A stretch of DNA of 64,000 nt, taken from positions 1-64,000 of the forward strand of contig NZ_JAKZAJ010000001.1 of assembly GCF_023156285.1 (NCBI RefSeq), written 5' to 3'. Below, piece by piece: positions 14,633 through 51,153 of this stretch; the stretch's first letter is position 1; every line of letters starts with the position of its first letter. The notes below the pieces were generated by a model. The model saw only the letters and a program-made list of their open reading frames with translations, was not told the DNA's origin and did not search any database. Source of the stretch: Marinobacter koreensis (GTDB lineage: Bacteria; Pseudomonadota; Gammaproteobacteria; Pseudomonadales; Oleiphilaceae). A program made the translations under genes and the position numbers.

Positions 14633-14710
14633 TCAAGGTGCTGTTTAGCCGGGCTGTAGAGATGCGCGGTTCGGCCGGATTTACAAGCATCGCAACCAAT
14701 GAGGTGAAAT

Positions 14711-14980
14711 ATGGCACTTTCTGCCAATGAAAAAGCACAGATCGTTAAGGATTTTCAGCAAGGCGATGGCGATACCGGTTCCCCTGAAGTTCAGGTGGCA
14801 CTGCTGAGCGCCAACATCGACAAGCTGCAGGATCACTTCAAGGCCAACAAGCAGGATCACCATTCCCGCCGTGGCCTGATCCGGATGGTAAACCAGCGTC
14901 GTAAGCTGCTGGACTACCTCAAGCGCAAGAACGCTGACCGTTACCTGGACCTGATCCAGCGTCTGGGCCTGCGTCGCTAA
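14711..14980 (+). CDS. rpsO: 30S ribosomal protein S15
   Basis: Primary-binding small-subunit protein (89 residues, invariant family length) that contacts the central domain of 16S rRNA and bridge B4. The sequence carries the typical [18 protein letters not shown] and LIQRLGLRR motifs. GAGGTGAAAT precedes the ATG. In E. coli S15 represses its own translation via a leader pseudoknot; the 78 bases before this gene are long enough for such a structure but I could not establish one. A terminator-like hairpin follows at 15029. Confidence 0.99.
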
Positions 14981-37853: not shown

Positions 37854-37955
37854 GAGGCGGGGCATGCAATTCAGGACACGCTACGAGCACATCCATGTGC
37901 GCTTGTTTCGGGCCGTCCATGGCCCTCAACAGTCCTGAATTGCATGCCCCGCCTC
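37854..37955 (+). repeat. Structured intergenic element, copy 1 (54-base core inside perfect 24-base inverted arms)
   Basis: The left arm 37854-37877 and right arm 37932-37955 are perfectly complementary over 24 bases. They enclose a 54-base core (37878-37931). The core, read on the opposite strand, aligns without gaps to the core of the element at 49588-49695 (41 of 54 identical), although the arms of the two elements share no sequence. The core folds into a main hairpin with apex CATGGACG and a second around GCACATGGATGTGC, making a three-way junction on the arms. It sits between aceF and the next plus-strand gene, and there is no reading frame in it. See copy 2. Confidence 0.85.
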
Positions 37956-38046: not shown

Positions 38047-39300
38047 ATGAAACCCGCAGAAATTCTTTCCCAGCCGCTCACGCTCCCCAGCGGCTCTGTT
38101 ATTCCCAATCGCTTTGCCAAGTCCGCCATGAGCGAGACGCTCGGCACGATCGACAATCACCCCACCAGGTCGCTGGTAAAGCTTTACCGGGCCTGGGCCG
38201 AGGGTGGTACCGGCCTGTCGATCACTGGCAATGTCATGATCGATCGCAGGCATATTGGTGAGCCGCAGAACGTGGTAGTGGAAGACGAGCGGGATCTGAC
38301 CCTGCTGACAGCCTGGGCAGAGGCAGGGAAGGCCGATGGTGGTCAGATCTGGATGCAGCTGAATCATCCGGGCAAGCAGAGCCCGCGGATGCTGAATCGG
38401 GATCCGGTCTCTCCTTCCACGATCCCCTTCCGAAAGGAGCTGCAGGGCATGTTTGCGACGCCCCGTGAACTCACTCCGGCGGAAATCGAAGACATCGTCC
38501 AGCGCTTTGCCCAGAGTGCTGCGGTGGCTCAGAAGGCCGGGTTTGACGGGGTTCAGATTCATGGGGCCCACGGCTACCTGGTGAGTCAGTTTCTGTCGCC
38601 GCACCACAATCAGCGAACGGATGAATGGGGTGGTTCCGCCGAGAAGCGTCGCCGGTTTGTGCTGGCGGTCTATCGGGCCATCCGGGAAGCCTGTGGGCCC
38701 GATTTTAATGTGGGAATCAAGCTGAATTCCGCGGACTTCCAGCGTGGCGGGTTCACCGAGGAGGAGTCGCTGGCGGTCATTGATTCGCTGGCATCGGAAG
38801 GCATCGATCTGGTGGAAATTTCCGGAGGTAACTACGAGAACCCGGCGATGGCGAAAGGCGATCACTCGGGCAAGATGAAAGAGAGTACCCGCGCAAGGGA
38901 GGCGTATTTTCTGGCATTCGCGGAGCAGGTTCGGGCTCGTGTGGCTGTGCCGTTGATGGTGACGGGCGGATTCCGCACGGCAGAGGGGATGGCAGAGGCG
39001 CTGGAGTCAGGTGCGACCGATCTGGTCGGGCTGGCGCGGCCACTGGTGGTGGAGCCTGATCTGCCGCTTCGTATTCTTGGTGGGGAGCCGGCTGTCAGTG
39101 CCGTCCGGCCAATCAGGACCGGCATCCGCATGGTCGATGATCTGGCCTTGATGGAAGTCAGTTGGTATGCGCGTCAGATTGGTCGAATGGCCAAGGGCAA
39201 GAAGCCCAGGAAACACGATCGCGGTGTGTTGTCGCTGGTGGAGGTGCTTGGCGTGATGGCTACCCGGGGAATGCGGACCCGTCTGAGGGCCGGTGAGTAG
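38047..39300 (+). CDS. NADH:flavin oxidoreductase, Old Yellow Enzyme-like
   Basis: FMN-dependent TIM-barrel oxidoreductase of 417 residues; GAGG lies 6 bases before the ATG. Motifs are NRFAKSAMSETLG near the N-terminus, QLNHPGKQS, the catalytic HGAHGYLVSQFLSPHHNQRTDEWGGS region split here as HGAHGYL and NQRTDEWGG near 175-200, GIKLNSADFQRGG, and the FMN-phosphate loops VTGGFRT and DLVGLARPLV. It lacks the C-terminal iron-sulfur/FAD domains of 2,4-dienoyl-CoA reductase. Members reduce activated alkenes such as enones; the natural substrate is unknown. It stands alone between the repeat element and the porin. Confidence 0.88.
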   Translation: MKPAEILSQPLTLPSGSVIPNRFAKSAMSETLGTIDNHPTRSLVKLYRAWAEGGTGLSITGNVMIDRRHIGEPQNVVVEDERDLTLLTAWAEAGKADGGQIWMQLNHPGKQSPRMLNRDPVSPSTIPFRKELQGMFATPRELTPAEIEDIVQRFAQSAAVAQKAGFDGVQIHGAHGYLVSQFLSPHHNQRTDEWGGSAEKRRRFVLAVYRAIREACGPDFNVGIKLNSADFQRGGFTEEESLAVIDSLASEGIDLVEISGGNYENPAMAKGDHSGKMKESTRAREAYFLAFAEQVRARVAVPLMVTGGFRTAEGMAEALESGATDLVGLARPLVVEPDLPLRILGGEPAVSAVRPIRTGIRMVDDLALMEVSWYARQIGRMAKGKKPRKHDRGVLSLVEVLGVMATRGMRTRLRAGE

Positions 39301-48499: not shown

Positions 48500-48529
48500 G
48501 GGATCAGATGAACGCCTTCATCTGACCCC
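48500..48529. repeat. GGGGTCAGATGAA-type palindromic repeat, copy 2
   Basis: GGGATCAGATGAA and TTCATCTGACCCC are separated by four bases; one pair is imperfect. The palindrome includes the last codons and TGA of the minus-strand astE (48518-48520). It lies 20 bases after astB and, like copy 1, is followed by GTTCAC on the plus strand. Confidence 0.8.
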
Positions 48530-49561
48530 AAGTTCACGGATCATCAGACCAACGCGCTGACCGACCGGCACCTCCCGGTTCGGGAACACAATGGCCTCGG
48601 GTACGGCGCCAACCCGATAATGCCGTGACCCATCCTCCCATATCAGCGTGCCGGGCTCATACTCCGTGAAATTGGCAACATCATCGGGGATGTGAAACAG
48701 GAAGCCCTCACCGGTGTTCAGAATCTCGTGGACTACCTCGAAGACAGTCAATGGAGGCTGCCCGGCGGCCGAAACGGGTGGCGGATCACCCCGGAAGCGA
48801 CGGCGTAACGCGTCCCGGATGCCGGCAAAACGGGTCAGGTCGTTCTGACCAAAGGGTCGAACCTTGCCCAGCTCAATCGTGAAACTCTCCGCACCCAGTT
48901 CCGATGAGGTGAACGACGAAAACGTCGTTCCGGCCCTGTGCTGGAGCAATAGTGTCTCTACGCCTGCTTCCAGCAGGAATTCACACTGGGTCTCCGGTAT
49001 CTGGCGGCCTTCCACAAAAGGATAGAGCGCAAACTTCTCCCGATGGGACGGACGGATGGCGGTATGCAGATCGTAGTGGTTGAGCGCCAATGCGGTATGC
49101 CGATGGGCAAACTCACGGCACAACGTTTCAATCTGAGAGGCCCGGGCTGCCTCGGGCAATCCACTGTACTCGTCCCGGCCATGCGCACCCGCGAACAGCC
49201 GGTTCATGTTCACATCAATGAATCGCTCGCCGGCCACCATGGCGGGCGGATTGCCCATGACCAGCAGCAACGGGCAGGCCACCTGCCAGTCGCCCGCAAG
49301 AATCTCGCTGATCAGCCCGTCCAGCACTTCAATGGGCGCTGTCTCGTTGCCATGGACTCCCACGGAAACAATCAGGGCCTCGCCGTTGGGGTTCTGGTGC
49401 GTGGCTGCGGGTGTTATCTCCAGAATGCCCACATGCGGACGGGTGACCGTGGTTCCGTCAGGGAGTCGGGCCATTGTTGGGTCAGGAGATTCTGAGGCGT
49501 TGGCCAGCGTGTGATCCAGCCAGCTATCCGAGGAATCAAAAAGTACAGAGGATGCATTCAT
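48518..49561 (-). CDS. astE: Succinylglutamate desuccinylase
   Basis: Zinc carboxypeptidase-like enzyme that splits N-succinylglutamate into glutamate and succinate, the last step of the pathway. 347 residues. Zinc ligands are in VGVHGNETAPIEV (His, Glu near 90) and the downstream His in LNHYDLHTAIRPS; the catalytic Glu is probably in FTIELGKVRPFG. Unlike in Pseudomonas, where aruE follows aruB, it is here on the opposite strand, convergent to astB and downstream of the arginine-type ABC importer. The final residues (GVR) are encoded in a palindromic repeat. Confidence 0.94.
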   Translation of the reverse strand: MNASSVLFDSSDSWLDHTLANASESPDPTMARLPDGTTVTRPHVGILEITPAATHQNPNGEALIVSVGVHGNETAPIEVLDGLISEILAGDWQVACPLLLVMGNPPAMVAGERFIDVNMNRLFAGAHGRDEYSGLPEAARASQIETLCREFAHRHTALALNHYDLHTAIRPSHREKFALYPFVEGRQIPETQCEFLLEAGVETLLLQHRAGTTFSSFTSSELGAESFTIELGKVRPFGQNDLTRFAGIRDALRRRFRGDPPPVSAAGQPPLTVFEVVHEILNTGEGFLFHIPDDVANFTEYEPGTLIWEDGSRHYRVGAVPEAIVFPNREVPVGQRVGLMIRELGVR

Positions 49562-49587
49562 CGCGAAATCCCCAAAAAAGGTCTGGG

Positions 49588-49695
49588 GTCAGGCGAAGAA
49601 CCTCCCTCCGGGAATGTGCGAAGCCATGGACGGCTTCGCTCAAGCGCACATGGACGTGCTTGTAGCGTTTCCCGGAGGGAGGTTCTTCGCCTGAC
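49588..49695 (-). repeat. Structured intergenic element, copy 2 (54-base core inside perfect 27-base inverted arms)
   Basis: Arms 49588-49614 and 49669-49695 are perfectly complementary over 27 bases; the core 49615-49668 is 54 bases. In the core's first 28 bases, the stem GCGAAGCC/GGCTTCGC caps on CATGGACG. Compared with copy 1, three of its pairs have changed on both sides (A-T for G-C twice, G-C for T-A once) so that pairing is kept. The second hairpin is around GCACATGGACGTGC. On the minus strand the arm is followed at a few bases by TTTTTT. It lies between aotM and astE, both minus, hence in the same orientation relative to transcription as copy 1. Confidence 0.85.
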
Positions 49696-49724: not shown

Positions 49725-50447
49725 TCAGGACCCAACCGGCCGCTGGTGCTTCAACAAATGATTTTCCAATTTGCGGAACGCAAACACCAGAATGAAGGTC
49801 AGTGTCAGATAGATCAGCGCCACAAAAATGAACGCATCGAACGGCGCATAAAACCGGGAGTAGATGTTCCGGGCGGCACCTGTGAGATCCACGATTGTCA
49901 CTACGCTGGCAATCGCACTGGAGTGCAGCATGAAGATGACCTCATTCGAGTAAGCCTGTACCGCACGACGCGCCGCACTGGGCAGAATGAGCCGACGCAT
50001 CCGCATCCACCAGTTCATACCGTAGGCCTTCGCCGCCTCAATTTCACCGGCGGGTGTCGACACAATGGCACCCCGGATGATTTCCGTGGTGTAGGCACAG
50101 GTATTCAGGGCAAACGCCAGCAGGGCCGGGTAGAAGGGCTCCCGGAAGATTTCCCACCAGAAGGTGTCCTGGATGCCGGGGATCTGGGCAATGCCGTAAT
50201 AGATGATGTACAGCTGGATCAGCAGCGGTGTGCCCCGGAACAGGTAGGTGTAGACCCAAACCGGACCGGAGATGAACGGGTTCTTCATGGTCCGCAGGAT
50301 CGCCAGCGGGACGGCGCACATCAGGCCGATGATCAGAGACAGGAATACCAGCTGGATGGTGTTCACCAGCCCGTTCCAGTATTCCATCATGGTCATCGCG
50401 GTGAAAATGTCGTTCTGGTTCAGCCATTGCGCGATAAAGTCAGGCAT
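49725..50447 (-). CDS. aotM: Arginine/basic amino-acid ABC transporter permease (HisM/AotM-like)
   Basis: Inner-membrane permease of 240 residues from the ATG at 50447, which has AGGGTG upstream and overlaps the aotQ stop by 8 bases; the frame extends to 50471 without support. It resembles HisM: EYWNGLVNTIQLVFLSLIIGL, FISGPVWVYTYLFRGTPLLIQLYIIYYG, and the ATPase-coupling EAA loop EIEAAKAYGMNWWMRMRRLILP. About five membrane segments. With AotQ it forms the heterodimeric channel. Substrate assignment to arginine/ornithine rests on the aru neighbourhood. Confidence 0.88.
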   Translation of the reverse strand: MPDFIAQWLNQNDIFTAMTMMEYWNGLVNTIQLVFLSLIIGLMCAVPLAILRTMKNPFISGPVWVYTYLFRGTPLLIQLYIIYYGIAQIPGIQDTFWWEIFREPFYPALLAFALNTCAYTTEIIRGAIVSTPAGEIEAAKAYGMNWWMRMRRLILPSAARRAVQAYSNEVIFMLHSSAIASVVTIVDLTGAARNIYSRFYAPFDAFIFVALIYLTLTFILVFAFRKLENHLLKHQRPVGS

Positions 50448-51153
50448 TTTGCGCACCCTGAGCCACGCCAACGTTGGCGCGTTTATTCAGCCACTTGATG
50501 AACAGTTCGGAGCCGGCCGTCAGCAGCAGATAGACCGACGCGACGGGCATAAAGAAGTGGAACGGCATGCGTTCTGCCTTGGCGGCCTCCTCGGCCACAC
50601 GAACCATGTCAGTCAGACCGATGATGGACACCAGCGCGGTGGACTTCAGCAGCACCTGCCAGTTGTTACCGAGCCCGGGCAGCGCATGGCGCAGCATCTG
50701 GGGCACCATGATCCGCCGGAAGGTGTGCCAGCGGGTAAAGCCATAGGCACGGGCGGCTTCAATCTGCCCCGTATCCACGGCGAGAAAGGCGCCCCGGAAG
50801 GTTTCGGCCATATAGGCACCGAAGATCAGGCCAATCGTCACAACGCCGGAAATGAATGGATCGAACTGGAAGAAAAAGTCGATCTGGTAATGGTCGTACA
50901 GGAAATCGGACAGAGAATTAACCATCACCTGGCCGCCGTAATAGAACAGCAGCATCATGACCAGATCCGGAACGCCCCGGATGACGGTGGTGTAGAACGT
51001 CGCGATGCCGTAGGCAATCCGGTTCCCGGATAACTTGGATGAGGCACCGAGCAGCCCCAGAAACAGCGAAAGGGCAAGGGAGAGGAAGGCCAGTTCGACG
51101 GTAACAACCGCACCGTCCAGAAGTTCGGGGCCATAGCCTTTGAGGTCGAACAT
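50440..51153 (-). CDS. aotQ: Arginine/basic amino-acid ABC transporter permease (HisQ/AotQ-like)
   Basis: 237-residue inner-membrane permease with the HisQ-type opening LLDGAVVTVELAFLSLALSLFLG, TTVIRGVPDLVMMLLFYYGGQ and EAA loop QIEAARAYGFTRWHTFRRIMVP. It pairs with AotM, whose start it overlaps. A nine-base hairpin separates it from the upstream binding-protein gene. Confidence 0.88.
   Translation of the reverse strand: MFDLKGYGPELLDGAVVTVELAFLSLALSLFLGLLGASSKLSGNRIAYGIATFYTTVIRGVPDLVMMLLFYYGGQVMVNSLSDFLYDHYQIDFFFQFDPFISGVVTIGLIFGAYMAETFRGAFLAVDTGQIEAARAYGFTRWHTFRRIMVPQMLRHALPGLGNNWQVLLKSTALVSIIGLTDMVRVAEEAAKAERMPFHFFMPVASVYLLLTAGSELFIKWLNKRANVGVAQGAQNA

What the first reader, a model, noticed from the sequence alone, without database searches (positions are those of the whole stretch)
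49588..49695. Copy 2 shows compensatory base changes and a repeated apical motif, evidence for selected structure
In the first 28 core bases, pairs i:(29-i) hold in both copies. Positions 8:21 and 7:22 are G-C in copy 1 and A-T in copy 2, and 4:25 is T-A versus G-C: three two-sided substitutions. Eleven of the 13 core differences fall in this stem. Both internal hairpins of both copies end in CATGGAYG, so a protein or RNA partner may read that apex. Both elements lie between co-directional genes, in the same orientation relative to transcription, after the last gene of an aceEF or transporter operon. They may act as an RNA three-way junction or a DNA cruciform.
Basis: partly seen in the sequence, partly recalled or inferred. 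Interest (0 to 1): 0.82.

Follow-up and report, generated by a model that had tools for sequence, protein, structure and literature searches.

The report
Dispersed hairpin repeat with GGA loops
Marinobacter chromosomes carry dozens of copies of a small folded element with two 'GGA' loops on a long stem whose sequence keeps changing while its pairing stays nearly perfect; it belongs to a known but unexplained RNA family, and the pattern of change says that one strand of it must fold, whichever way the neighbouring genes run.

Summary
The compensatory changes and repeated apical motif are real. The two window copies belong to a dispersed family: 57 copies in this Marinobacter genome, 79 in M. 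santoriniensis, and a lower bound near 100 in some relatives. It is the Marinobacter branch of the function-unknown RNA motif TwoAYGGAY (Rfam RF01731).

In 135 copies the stem is 96% Watson-Crick (98.8% with G-U). Between orthologues it diverges at the synonymous rate (0.225 against 0.217), yet 179 changed pairs changed on both sides and 57 on one. Transversion-type swaps are as frequent as at neutral sites, so the arms probably copy one another (template switching).

Selection is still visible. Leftover mismatches are G·T, not A·C, on the AYGGAY strand (73:7; second set 31:4), in copies sense and antisense to genes alike. Both loops are ANGGAY: A, G, G, A nearly frozen, N and Y drifting at about the neutral rate, the CsrA/RsmA signature.

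Best reading: a strand-specific structured RNA, probably bound by CsrA/Rsm, carried as an old dispersed repeat. Transcription and binding are untested.

The parts
49588..49695 (+). Copy 2, whole element: outer stem plus core, AYGGAY strand is +; lies between a transporter permease gene (49725-50471, -) and an astE-like gene (48518-49561, -)
   Evidence: R1 covariance hit 49593-49690 + at 105.1 bits; sequence; ORFs
49588..49614 (+). Copy 2 outer stem, 5' arm (27 nt, fully complementary to 49669-49695)
   Evidence: orthologues vary in sequence but stay paired
49615..49668 (+). Copy 2 conserved 54-nt core with two hairpins
49626..49631 (+). Copy 2 apical loop 1, ATGGAC (hairpin 1, 49618-49639)
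49650..49655 (+). Copy 2 apical loop 2, ATGGAC inside ACATGGACGT (hairpin 2, about 49641-49662)
49669..49695 (+). Copy 2 outer stem, 3' arm (27 nt)
37856..37953 (-). Copy 1, AYGGAY strand is -; lies between aceF (ends 37806, +) and an NADH:flavin-oxidoreductase-like gene (38047-39300, +); stem extends about 2 bp further on each side
   Evidence: R1 hit 98.6 bits; sequence; ORFs
37915..37920 (-). Copy 1 apical loop 1, ATGGAC on the - strand
37891..37896 (-). Copy 1 apical loop 2, ATGGAT on the - strand

Best explanation
The element is a copy of the Marinobacter branch of the TwoAYGGAY structured RNA, carried as an old, chromosomal, dispersed repeat. Shown: the AYGGAY strand folds into a long outer stem (about 22-30 bp) carrying two hairpins with ANGGAY loops; that fold and those loops are maintained in copies of either orientation to neighbouring genes. 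Inferred: the working molecule is the single-stranded AYGGAY strand, most likely RNA, and the two ANGGA loops are read by the translational regulator CsrA/RsmA, which is a dimer with two GGA-hairpin sites; each transcribed copy would be a small ligand or decoy for it. Inferred from the substitution pattern: the two stem arms are kept complementary mainly by template-switch copying of one arm from the other during replication, which also can flip the core between the arms; selection then removes mismatches that the folded strand does not tolerate (A.C more than G.U). Steps not shown: that the strand is transcribed at most copies, that CsrA binds, and what the binding changes.
For: Family: 27 blastn matches and 57 covariance-model matches in this genome, 79 in G018. 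RF01731 matches 11 of these copies at 35.9-41.7 bits in the own genome and exceeds its cut-off of 43 in 6 of 58 relatives, with none in 14 control genomes. Strand-specific selection: outer-stem mismatches read on the AYGGAY strand are G.T 73, A.C 7, other 30 of 2970 pairs; G.T:A.C is 24:0 in copies sense to both genes and 28:3 in copies antisense to both; a set of 107 Marinobacter copies found by an exact core pattern and paired without a covariance model gives 31:4, p=3.5e-6 (it includes some M. santoriniensis copies, so it is not wholly independent). One-sided differences between orthologues are WC-GT 36, WC-AC 5, of both C>T and A>G kinds. Loops: in 51 and 50 orthologous pairs the positions A,N,G,G,A,Y changed 0,15,1,0,0,8 (loop 1) and 0,11,0,0,0,13 (loop 2), equal in sense and antisense copies, against 0.217 divergence at 4-fold sites. 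Loop 2 reads ACANGGAYGU, the Rsm/Csr hairpin consensus (own knowledge); ANGGA is given as the CsrA motif in PMC9788540, and PMC4333381 matched the CsrA motif model to both TwoAYGGAY loops. One csrA gene is present. Arm copying: per-site arm divergence 0.225 equals the 4-fold value; 179 two-sided against 57 one-sided changes; 100 of 171 WC-WC swaps are transversion-type (59%; 54% at 4-fold sites), changes are clustered (p=0.008) and overdispersed (mean 4.1, variance 17). PMC8604942 lists arm homogenisation and spacer inversion as products of template switching; one clean core inversion with conserved flanks and arms is seen (G000 C2:442945 against G018 C21:61941).
Against: Orientation to genes is random and no promoter-like signal precedes the element, so it is unclear what would transcribe the AYGGAY strand of antisense copies; a protein that reads one strand as single-stranded DNA would predict the same asymmetry. 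In another genus (g182) loop 2 of several copies reads ACGAC, without GGA. A CsrA site is inferred from sequence only. Eight of the nine apparent inversions have more diverged arms or flanks and could be independent events. Overdispersed arm change was uncorrelated with local divergence, so element replacement could contribute at some loci.
Confidence: 0.5

Rival explanations
1. DNA-level element: the AYGGAY strand acts as a single-stranded DNA hairpin recognised by a nuclease, transposase or other protein; the family is a non-autonomous mobile element or its old copies, and RNA plays no part.
For: High copy number, intergenic, orientation random to genes, head-to-head pairs 15 of 15 in two genomes, no promoter. 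Strand asymmetry is independent of transcription direction, which single-stranded DNA recognition predicts directly. A weakly conserved C-rich stretch lies at a fixed distance 3' of the stem.
Against: 51 of 56 copies in this genome sit at the same locus in G018 and the presence/absence differences look like deletions with remnants, not insertions. Copies with near-identical cores share no arm similarity (0.45-0.48 against 0.40-0.43 at random), so arms are not carried along in copying. The Y1 (HUH) transposase family is absent from G000 and G018 and does not track copy number. ANGGA with a free second base is an RNA-protein signature. G.T is only modestly better than A.C in DNA.
Confidence: 0.27
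2. Ordinary 3'-end element: a terminator, RNA-stabilising or processing hairpin in the untranslated ends of genes.
For: Both window copies follow co-directional genes; among co-directional copies the median distance to the upstream stop is 40 bp.
Against: Sense and antisense copies are equal (44:44) and 18 copies lie between divergent genes. No T-rich tract follows (T 0.14-0.20 in the first 30 bases). A hairpin acting in the mRNA would show A.C excess on the AYGGAY strand in antisense copies; it shows 28:3 the other way.
Confidence: 0.06
3. No function: relics of a repeat whose arms stay complementary only because template switching repairs them.
For: Arm divergence equals the 4-fold rate and the swap spectrum equals the neutral spectrum.
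Against: Strand-symmetric mutation and repair predict G.T equal to A.C; observed 73:7 and 31:4. Loop positions A,G,G,A changed once in about 400 site comparisons where about 88 are expected at the 4-fold rate.
Confidence: 0.07

Closest known systems
TwoAYGGAY RNA motif (Rfam RF01731; Weinberg et al. 2010, PMC2864571)
   Same: Two hairpins with AYGGAY loops, a tandem G.A pair in hairpin 1 of many copies, a poorly conserved outer stem, same strand; the model finds the same copies.
   Different: Window copies themselves give no RF01731 match up to E=10 and no copy in this genome reaches the curated cut-off. I found no earlier description of it as a high-copy repeat in Marinobacter (few papers mention it).
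CsrA/RsmA-binding RNAs (CsrB, RsmY/Z)
   Same: ANGGA in hairpin loops with a free N; the CsrA link was proposed from motif matching in PMC4333381.
   Different: Those are single independent genes with promoters and terminators and many sites; this is a two-site element in dozens of copies without a visible promoter. Binding untested.
REP/REPIN repeats with RAYT (Y1) transposases
   Same: Abundant intergenic hairpin repeats, sometimes in inverted pairs, strand-specific structure.
   Different: No Y1 transposase in this genome; the element is larger, branched, and its stem sequence is not conserved between copies.
Template-switch (quasipalindrome) evolution of hairpins (PMC8794818, PMC8604942)
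   Same: Perfect arms, coupled multi-base changes, spacer inversion.
   Different: Here it is seen over dozens of paralogous loci with a neutral yardstick beside them, together with residual strand-specific selection.

Membership tests
TwoAYGGAY (RF01731) | Two hairpins with AYGGAY-type loops | tested here: met
   ANGGAY in both loops in nearly all 135 copies
TwoAYGGAY (RF01731) | Match over Rfam's curated score | tested here: inconclusive
   Not met by the window copies or any copy of this genome (best 41.7, cut-off 43); met by copies of the same family in 6 of 58 relatives, most of them in the same genus
TwoAYGGAY (RF01731) | Homology of window copies to copies that RF01731 detects | tested here: met
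   One covariance model finds both sets at 62.9-108 bits
CsrA/RsmA-binding RNA | ANGGA in exposed loops, kept by selection | tested here: met
CsrA/RsmA-binding RNA | Own promoter or established transcript | tested here: not met
   No promoter-like signal upstream; transcripts themselves not testable here
CsrA/RsmA-binding RNA | Binds CsrA | not testable with these tools
   csrA is present in the genome
REP/REPIN-RAYT | Y1 (RAYT) transposase in the genome | tested here: not met
   0 matches to PF01797 in G000, G018 and several other high-copy genomes
REP/REPIN-RAYT | Stem sequence shared between copies | tested here: not met
Intrinsic terminator | T-run after the stem, oriented with the upstream gene | tested here: not met

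The most novel reading that the evidence does not exclude
A genome-wide set of dozens of two-site CsrA/Rsm decoys, built as a dispersed repeat in both orientations, whose long stems are rewritten continually by template switching yet filtered on one strand for foldability, and whose cores can flip.
Probability: 0.3. Interest if true: 0.82.

Novelty: new variant of a known kind. Interest (0 to 1): 0.62.

Why it matters
TwoAYGGAY has had no assigned function since 2010. Here it is a repeat with dozens of copies per genome, which makes it testable by ordinary RNA-seq and CsrA binding. It also supplies a natural experiment on an open question, how long RNA stems stay paired while their sequence turns over: many loci, neutral sites alongside, and a strand test (G.T against A.C) that separates repair of palindromes from selection on a folded strand. 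It cautions that two-sided changes alone, the usual proof of a selected RNA structure, can come from template switching.

Tried and rejected
Terminator or mRNA-sense element: rejected by random orientation and no T-run. I first expected all copies to be antisense to the upstream gene, from the head-to-head pairs; the 135-copy table refuted that. RAYT/Y1 transposition: not supported. Arms copied along with the core, or taken from other copies: not seen. Deamination as the cause of the G.T excess: A>G changes contribute as well as C>T. Ungapped counting of arm changes inflated some pairs through register errors; the covariance alignment replaced it. Recent insertion with an empty site: most differences look like deletions; one locus (G018 C5:180520) is ambiguous, with a single arm joined at a short near-direct repeat. 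Rfam hits of the element region to Yersinia sRNAs and microRNAs are below cut-off and ignored. The core was not found in plasmid or phage collections.

Full report
WHAT WAS CLAIMED AND WHAT HOLDS. The finding says that copy 2 (49588-49695) shares with copy 1 (about 37.86-37.95 kb) a core with three compensatory changes and a repeated CATGGAYG apex. Recomputed: 13 core differences, 11 in the first stem, two-sided changes at 4:25, 7:22 and 8:21. Pairs 5:24 and 6:23 are a tandem G.A in copy 1, not Watson-Crick pairs, and 3:26 does not pair in copy 2. Tandem G.A pairs are reported for TwoAYGGAY (PMC4333381).

A DISPERSED FAMILY. blastn finds 27 matches in this genome. A covariance model built from 35 copies finds 57 matches above E=0.01 in this genome (one is the weak reverse-strand match of a copy, so 56 distinct places) and 79 in G018. 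The core is 52-58 nt; the outer stem is 22-36 bp and differs between copies. Relatives of the same genus carry 2 to at least 107 copies; about 100 is the ceiling of that search, so the high counts are lower bounds. A pattern scan named the hosts: all listed matches are Marinobacter, and the contig lengths of G018 equal those of M. santoriniensis NKSG1. The core is not in the plasmid or phage collections.

IDENTITY. RF01731 (TwoAYGGAY) finds 11 of these places in this genome below its cut-off, copies over the cut-off in 6 of 58 relatives, and 14 of 369 genomes sampled from the class. The window copies themselves give no RF01731 match up to E=10; they are linked through the family model. I therefore call this a Marinobacter branch of TwoAYGGAY, not a plain member by score. 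Weinberg et al. listed TwoAYGGAY as a probable RNA, probably not cis-regulatory.

COVARIATION. In 35 copies: outer stem 99.3% paired, 21 of 22 pairs with two-sided changes, covariation score 0.593 against 0.149 shuffled and at most 0.143 when slid. These copies were collected partly through their inverted repeats, which favours pairing. At the orthologous locus of copy 2 in 10 genomes the outer stem is 99.5% paired with 18 of 22 pairs changing on both sides; at copy 1 in 12 genomes, 98.1% and 10 of 22.

ORIENTATION. With a simple codon-usage gene caller, the AYGGAY strand relative to the two flanking genes is (+,+) 44, (-,-) 44, (+,-) 22, (-,+) 18 in 128 copies, with 7 more overlapping predicted genes. 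Copies from other Marinobacter genomes give 29, 25, 25, 25. Orientation at a given locus is usually kept: copies 1 and 2 keep theirs in the orthologues read. Closely spaced pairs are always head-to-head, 15 of 15.

WHICH STRAND FOLDS. A mutation in a stem gives G.T on one strand and A.C on the other; without selection the two are equal. Read on the AYGGAY strand the stems hold G.T 73 and A.C 7. The excess is the same whether that strand is sense (24:0) or antisense (28:3) to the genes. A second set, anchored at the core and paired without a covariance model, gives 31:4. Fixed one-sided differences between orthologues give 36:5. So the folded strand is the AYGGAY strand itself, independent of neighbouring transcription. 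This fits an RNA, since G-U pairs well in RNA, but single-stranded DNA recognised on one strand is not excluded.

LOOPS. Among orthologous pairs of this genome and G018, loop positions A,N,G,G,A,Y changed 0,15,1,0,0,8 and 0,11,0,0,0,13. N and Y change at about the 4-fold rate (0.217); the rest are nearly frozen. This is the ANGGA pattern of CsrA/RsmA sites (PMC4333381). The genome has one csrA.

HOW THE STEM EVOLVES. Stem sites diverge at 0.225 per site against 0.217 at 4-fold sites of flanking genes; 179 pairs changed on both sides and 57 on one. If change went stepwise through G-U, swaps would be transition-type; 100 of 171 are transversion-type, like neutral sites. Changes are clustered and overdispersed and do not follow local divergence. 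Template switching between arms predicts coupled changes at the neutral rate and occasional inversion of the spacer (PMC8604942 and PMC8794818). Nine of 51 orthologous pairs have the core in opposite orientation; one is clean, another nearly so, and the others have diverged arms or flanks. Presence/absence differences look mostly like deletions with remnants.

WHAT IT IS NOT. No T-run, no promoter-like signal, no match between copy number and Y1 transposase, no sharing of arms between copies with near-identical cores.

CONCLUSION. Shown: a dispersed, old, strand-specific structured element with two ANGGA loops under strong selection. Inferred: RNA, CsrA/Rsm as partner, template switching as the arm-keeping process. 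Not shown: transcription, binding, effect on the cell.

Noticed in passing
L224 (G000 C3:50132-50215), L225 (C3:70981-71064), L226 (C1:381925-382008); also L052 and L053: Three copies in this genome carry a 99-100% identical 84-nt insert in the apical loop of hairpin 2, and two relatives carry a similar insert at the copy-2 locus; no Rfam match. It looks like a nested small element with a fixed insertion point.
   Followed up: partly
G000 and G018 pairs such as L172:1701-2009; also G215, G325, G419: Elements within 150 bp of each other are always head-to-head (15 of 15 in Marinobacter; 4 of 4 such pairs seen in another genus).
   Followed up: partly
L153 (G018 C5:166438-166538): A chimeric copy: 3' half and flank identical to the G000 orthologue, 5' arm and flank different, only 17 of 22 pairs formed; looks like recombination within the core.
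   Followed up: no
L025 (G000 C2:160585): Deletion between a head-to-head pair left a fused palindrome made of the two second hairpins.
   Followed up: no
L345, L348, L349 (other gammaproteobacterial genera): The same architecture with unrelated sequence; several copies have loop 2 as ACGAC, without GGA.
   Followed up: partly
window 14646-14767 (+): Rfam S15 ribosomal leader (RF00114, 43 bits).
   Followed up: no
window 49576-49600: A short CCCC...GGGG inverted repeat beside the start of the astE-like gene partly recurs in orthologues; it might cover the ribosome-binding site.
   Followed up: no
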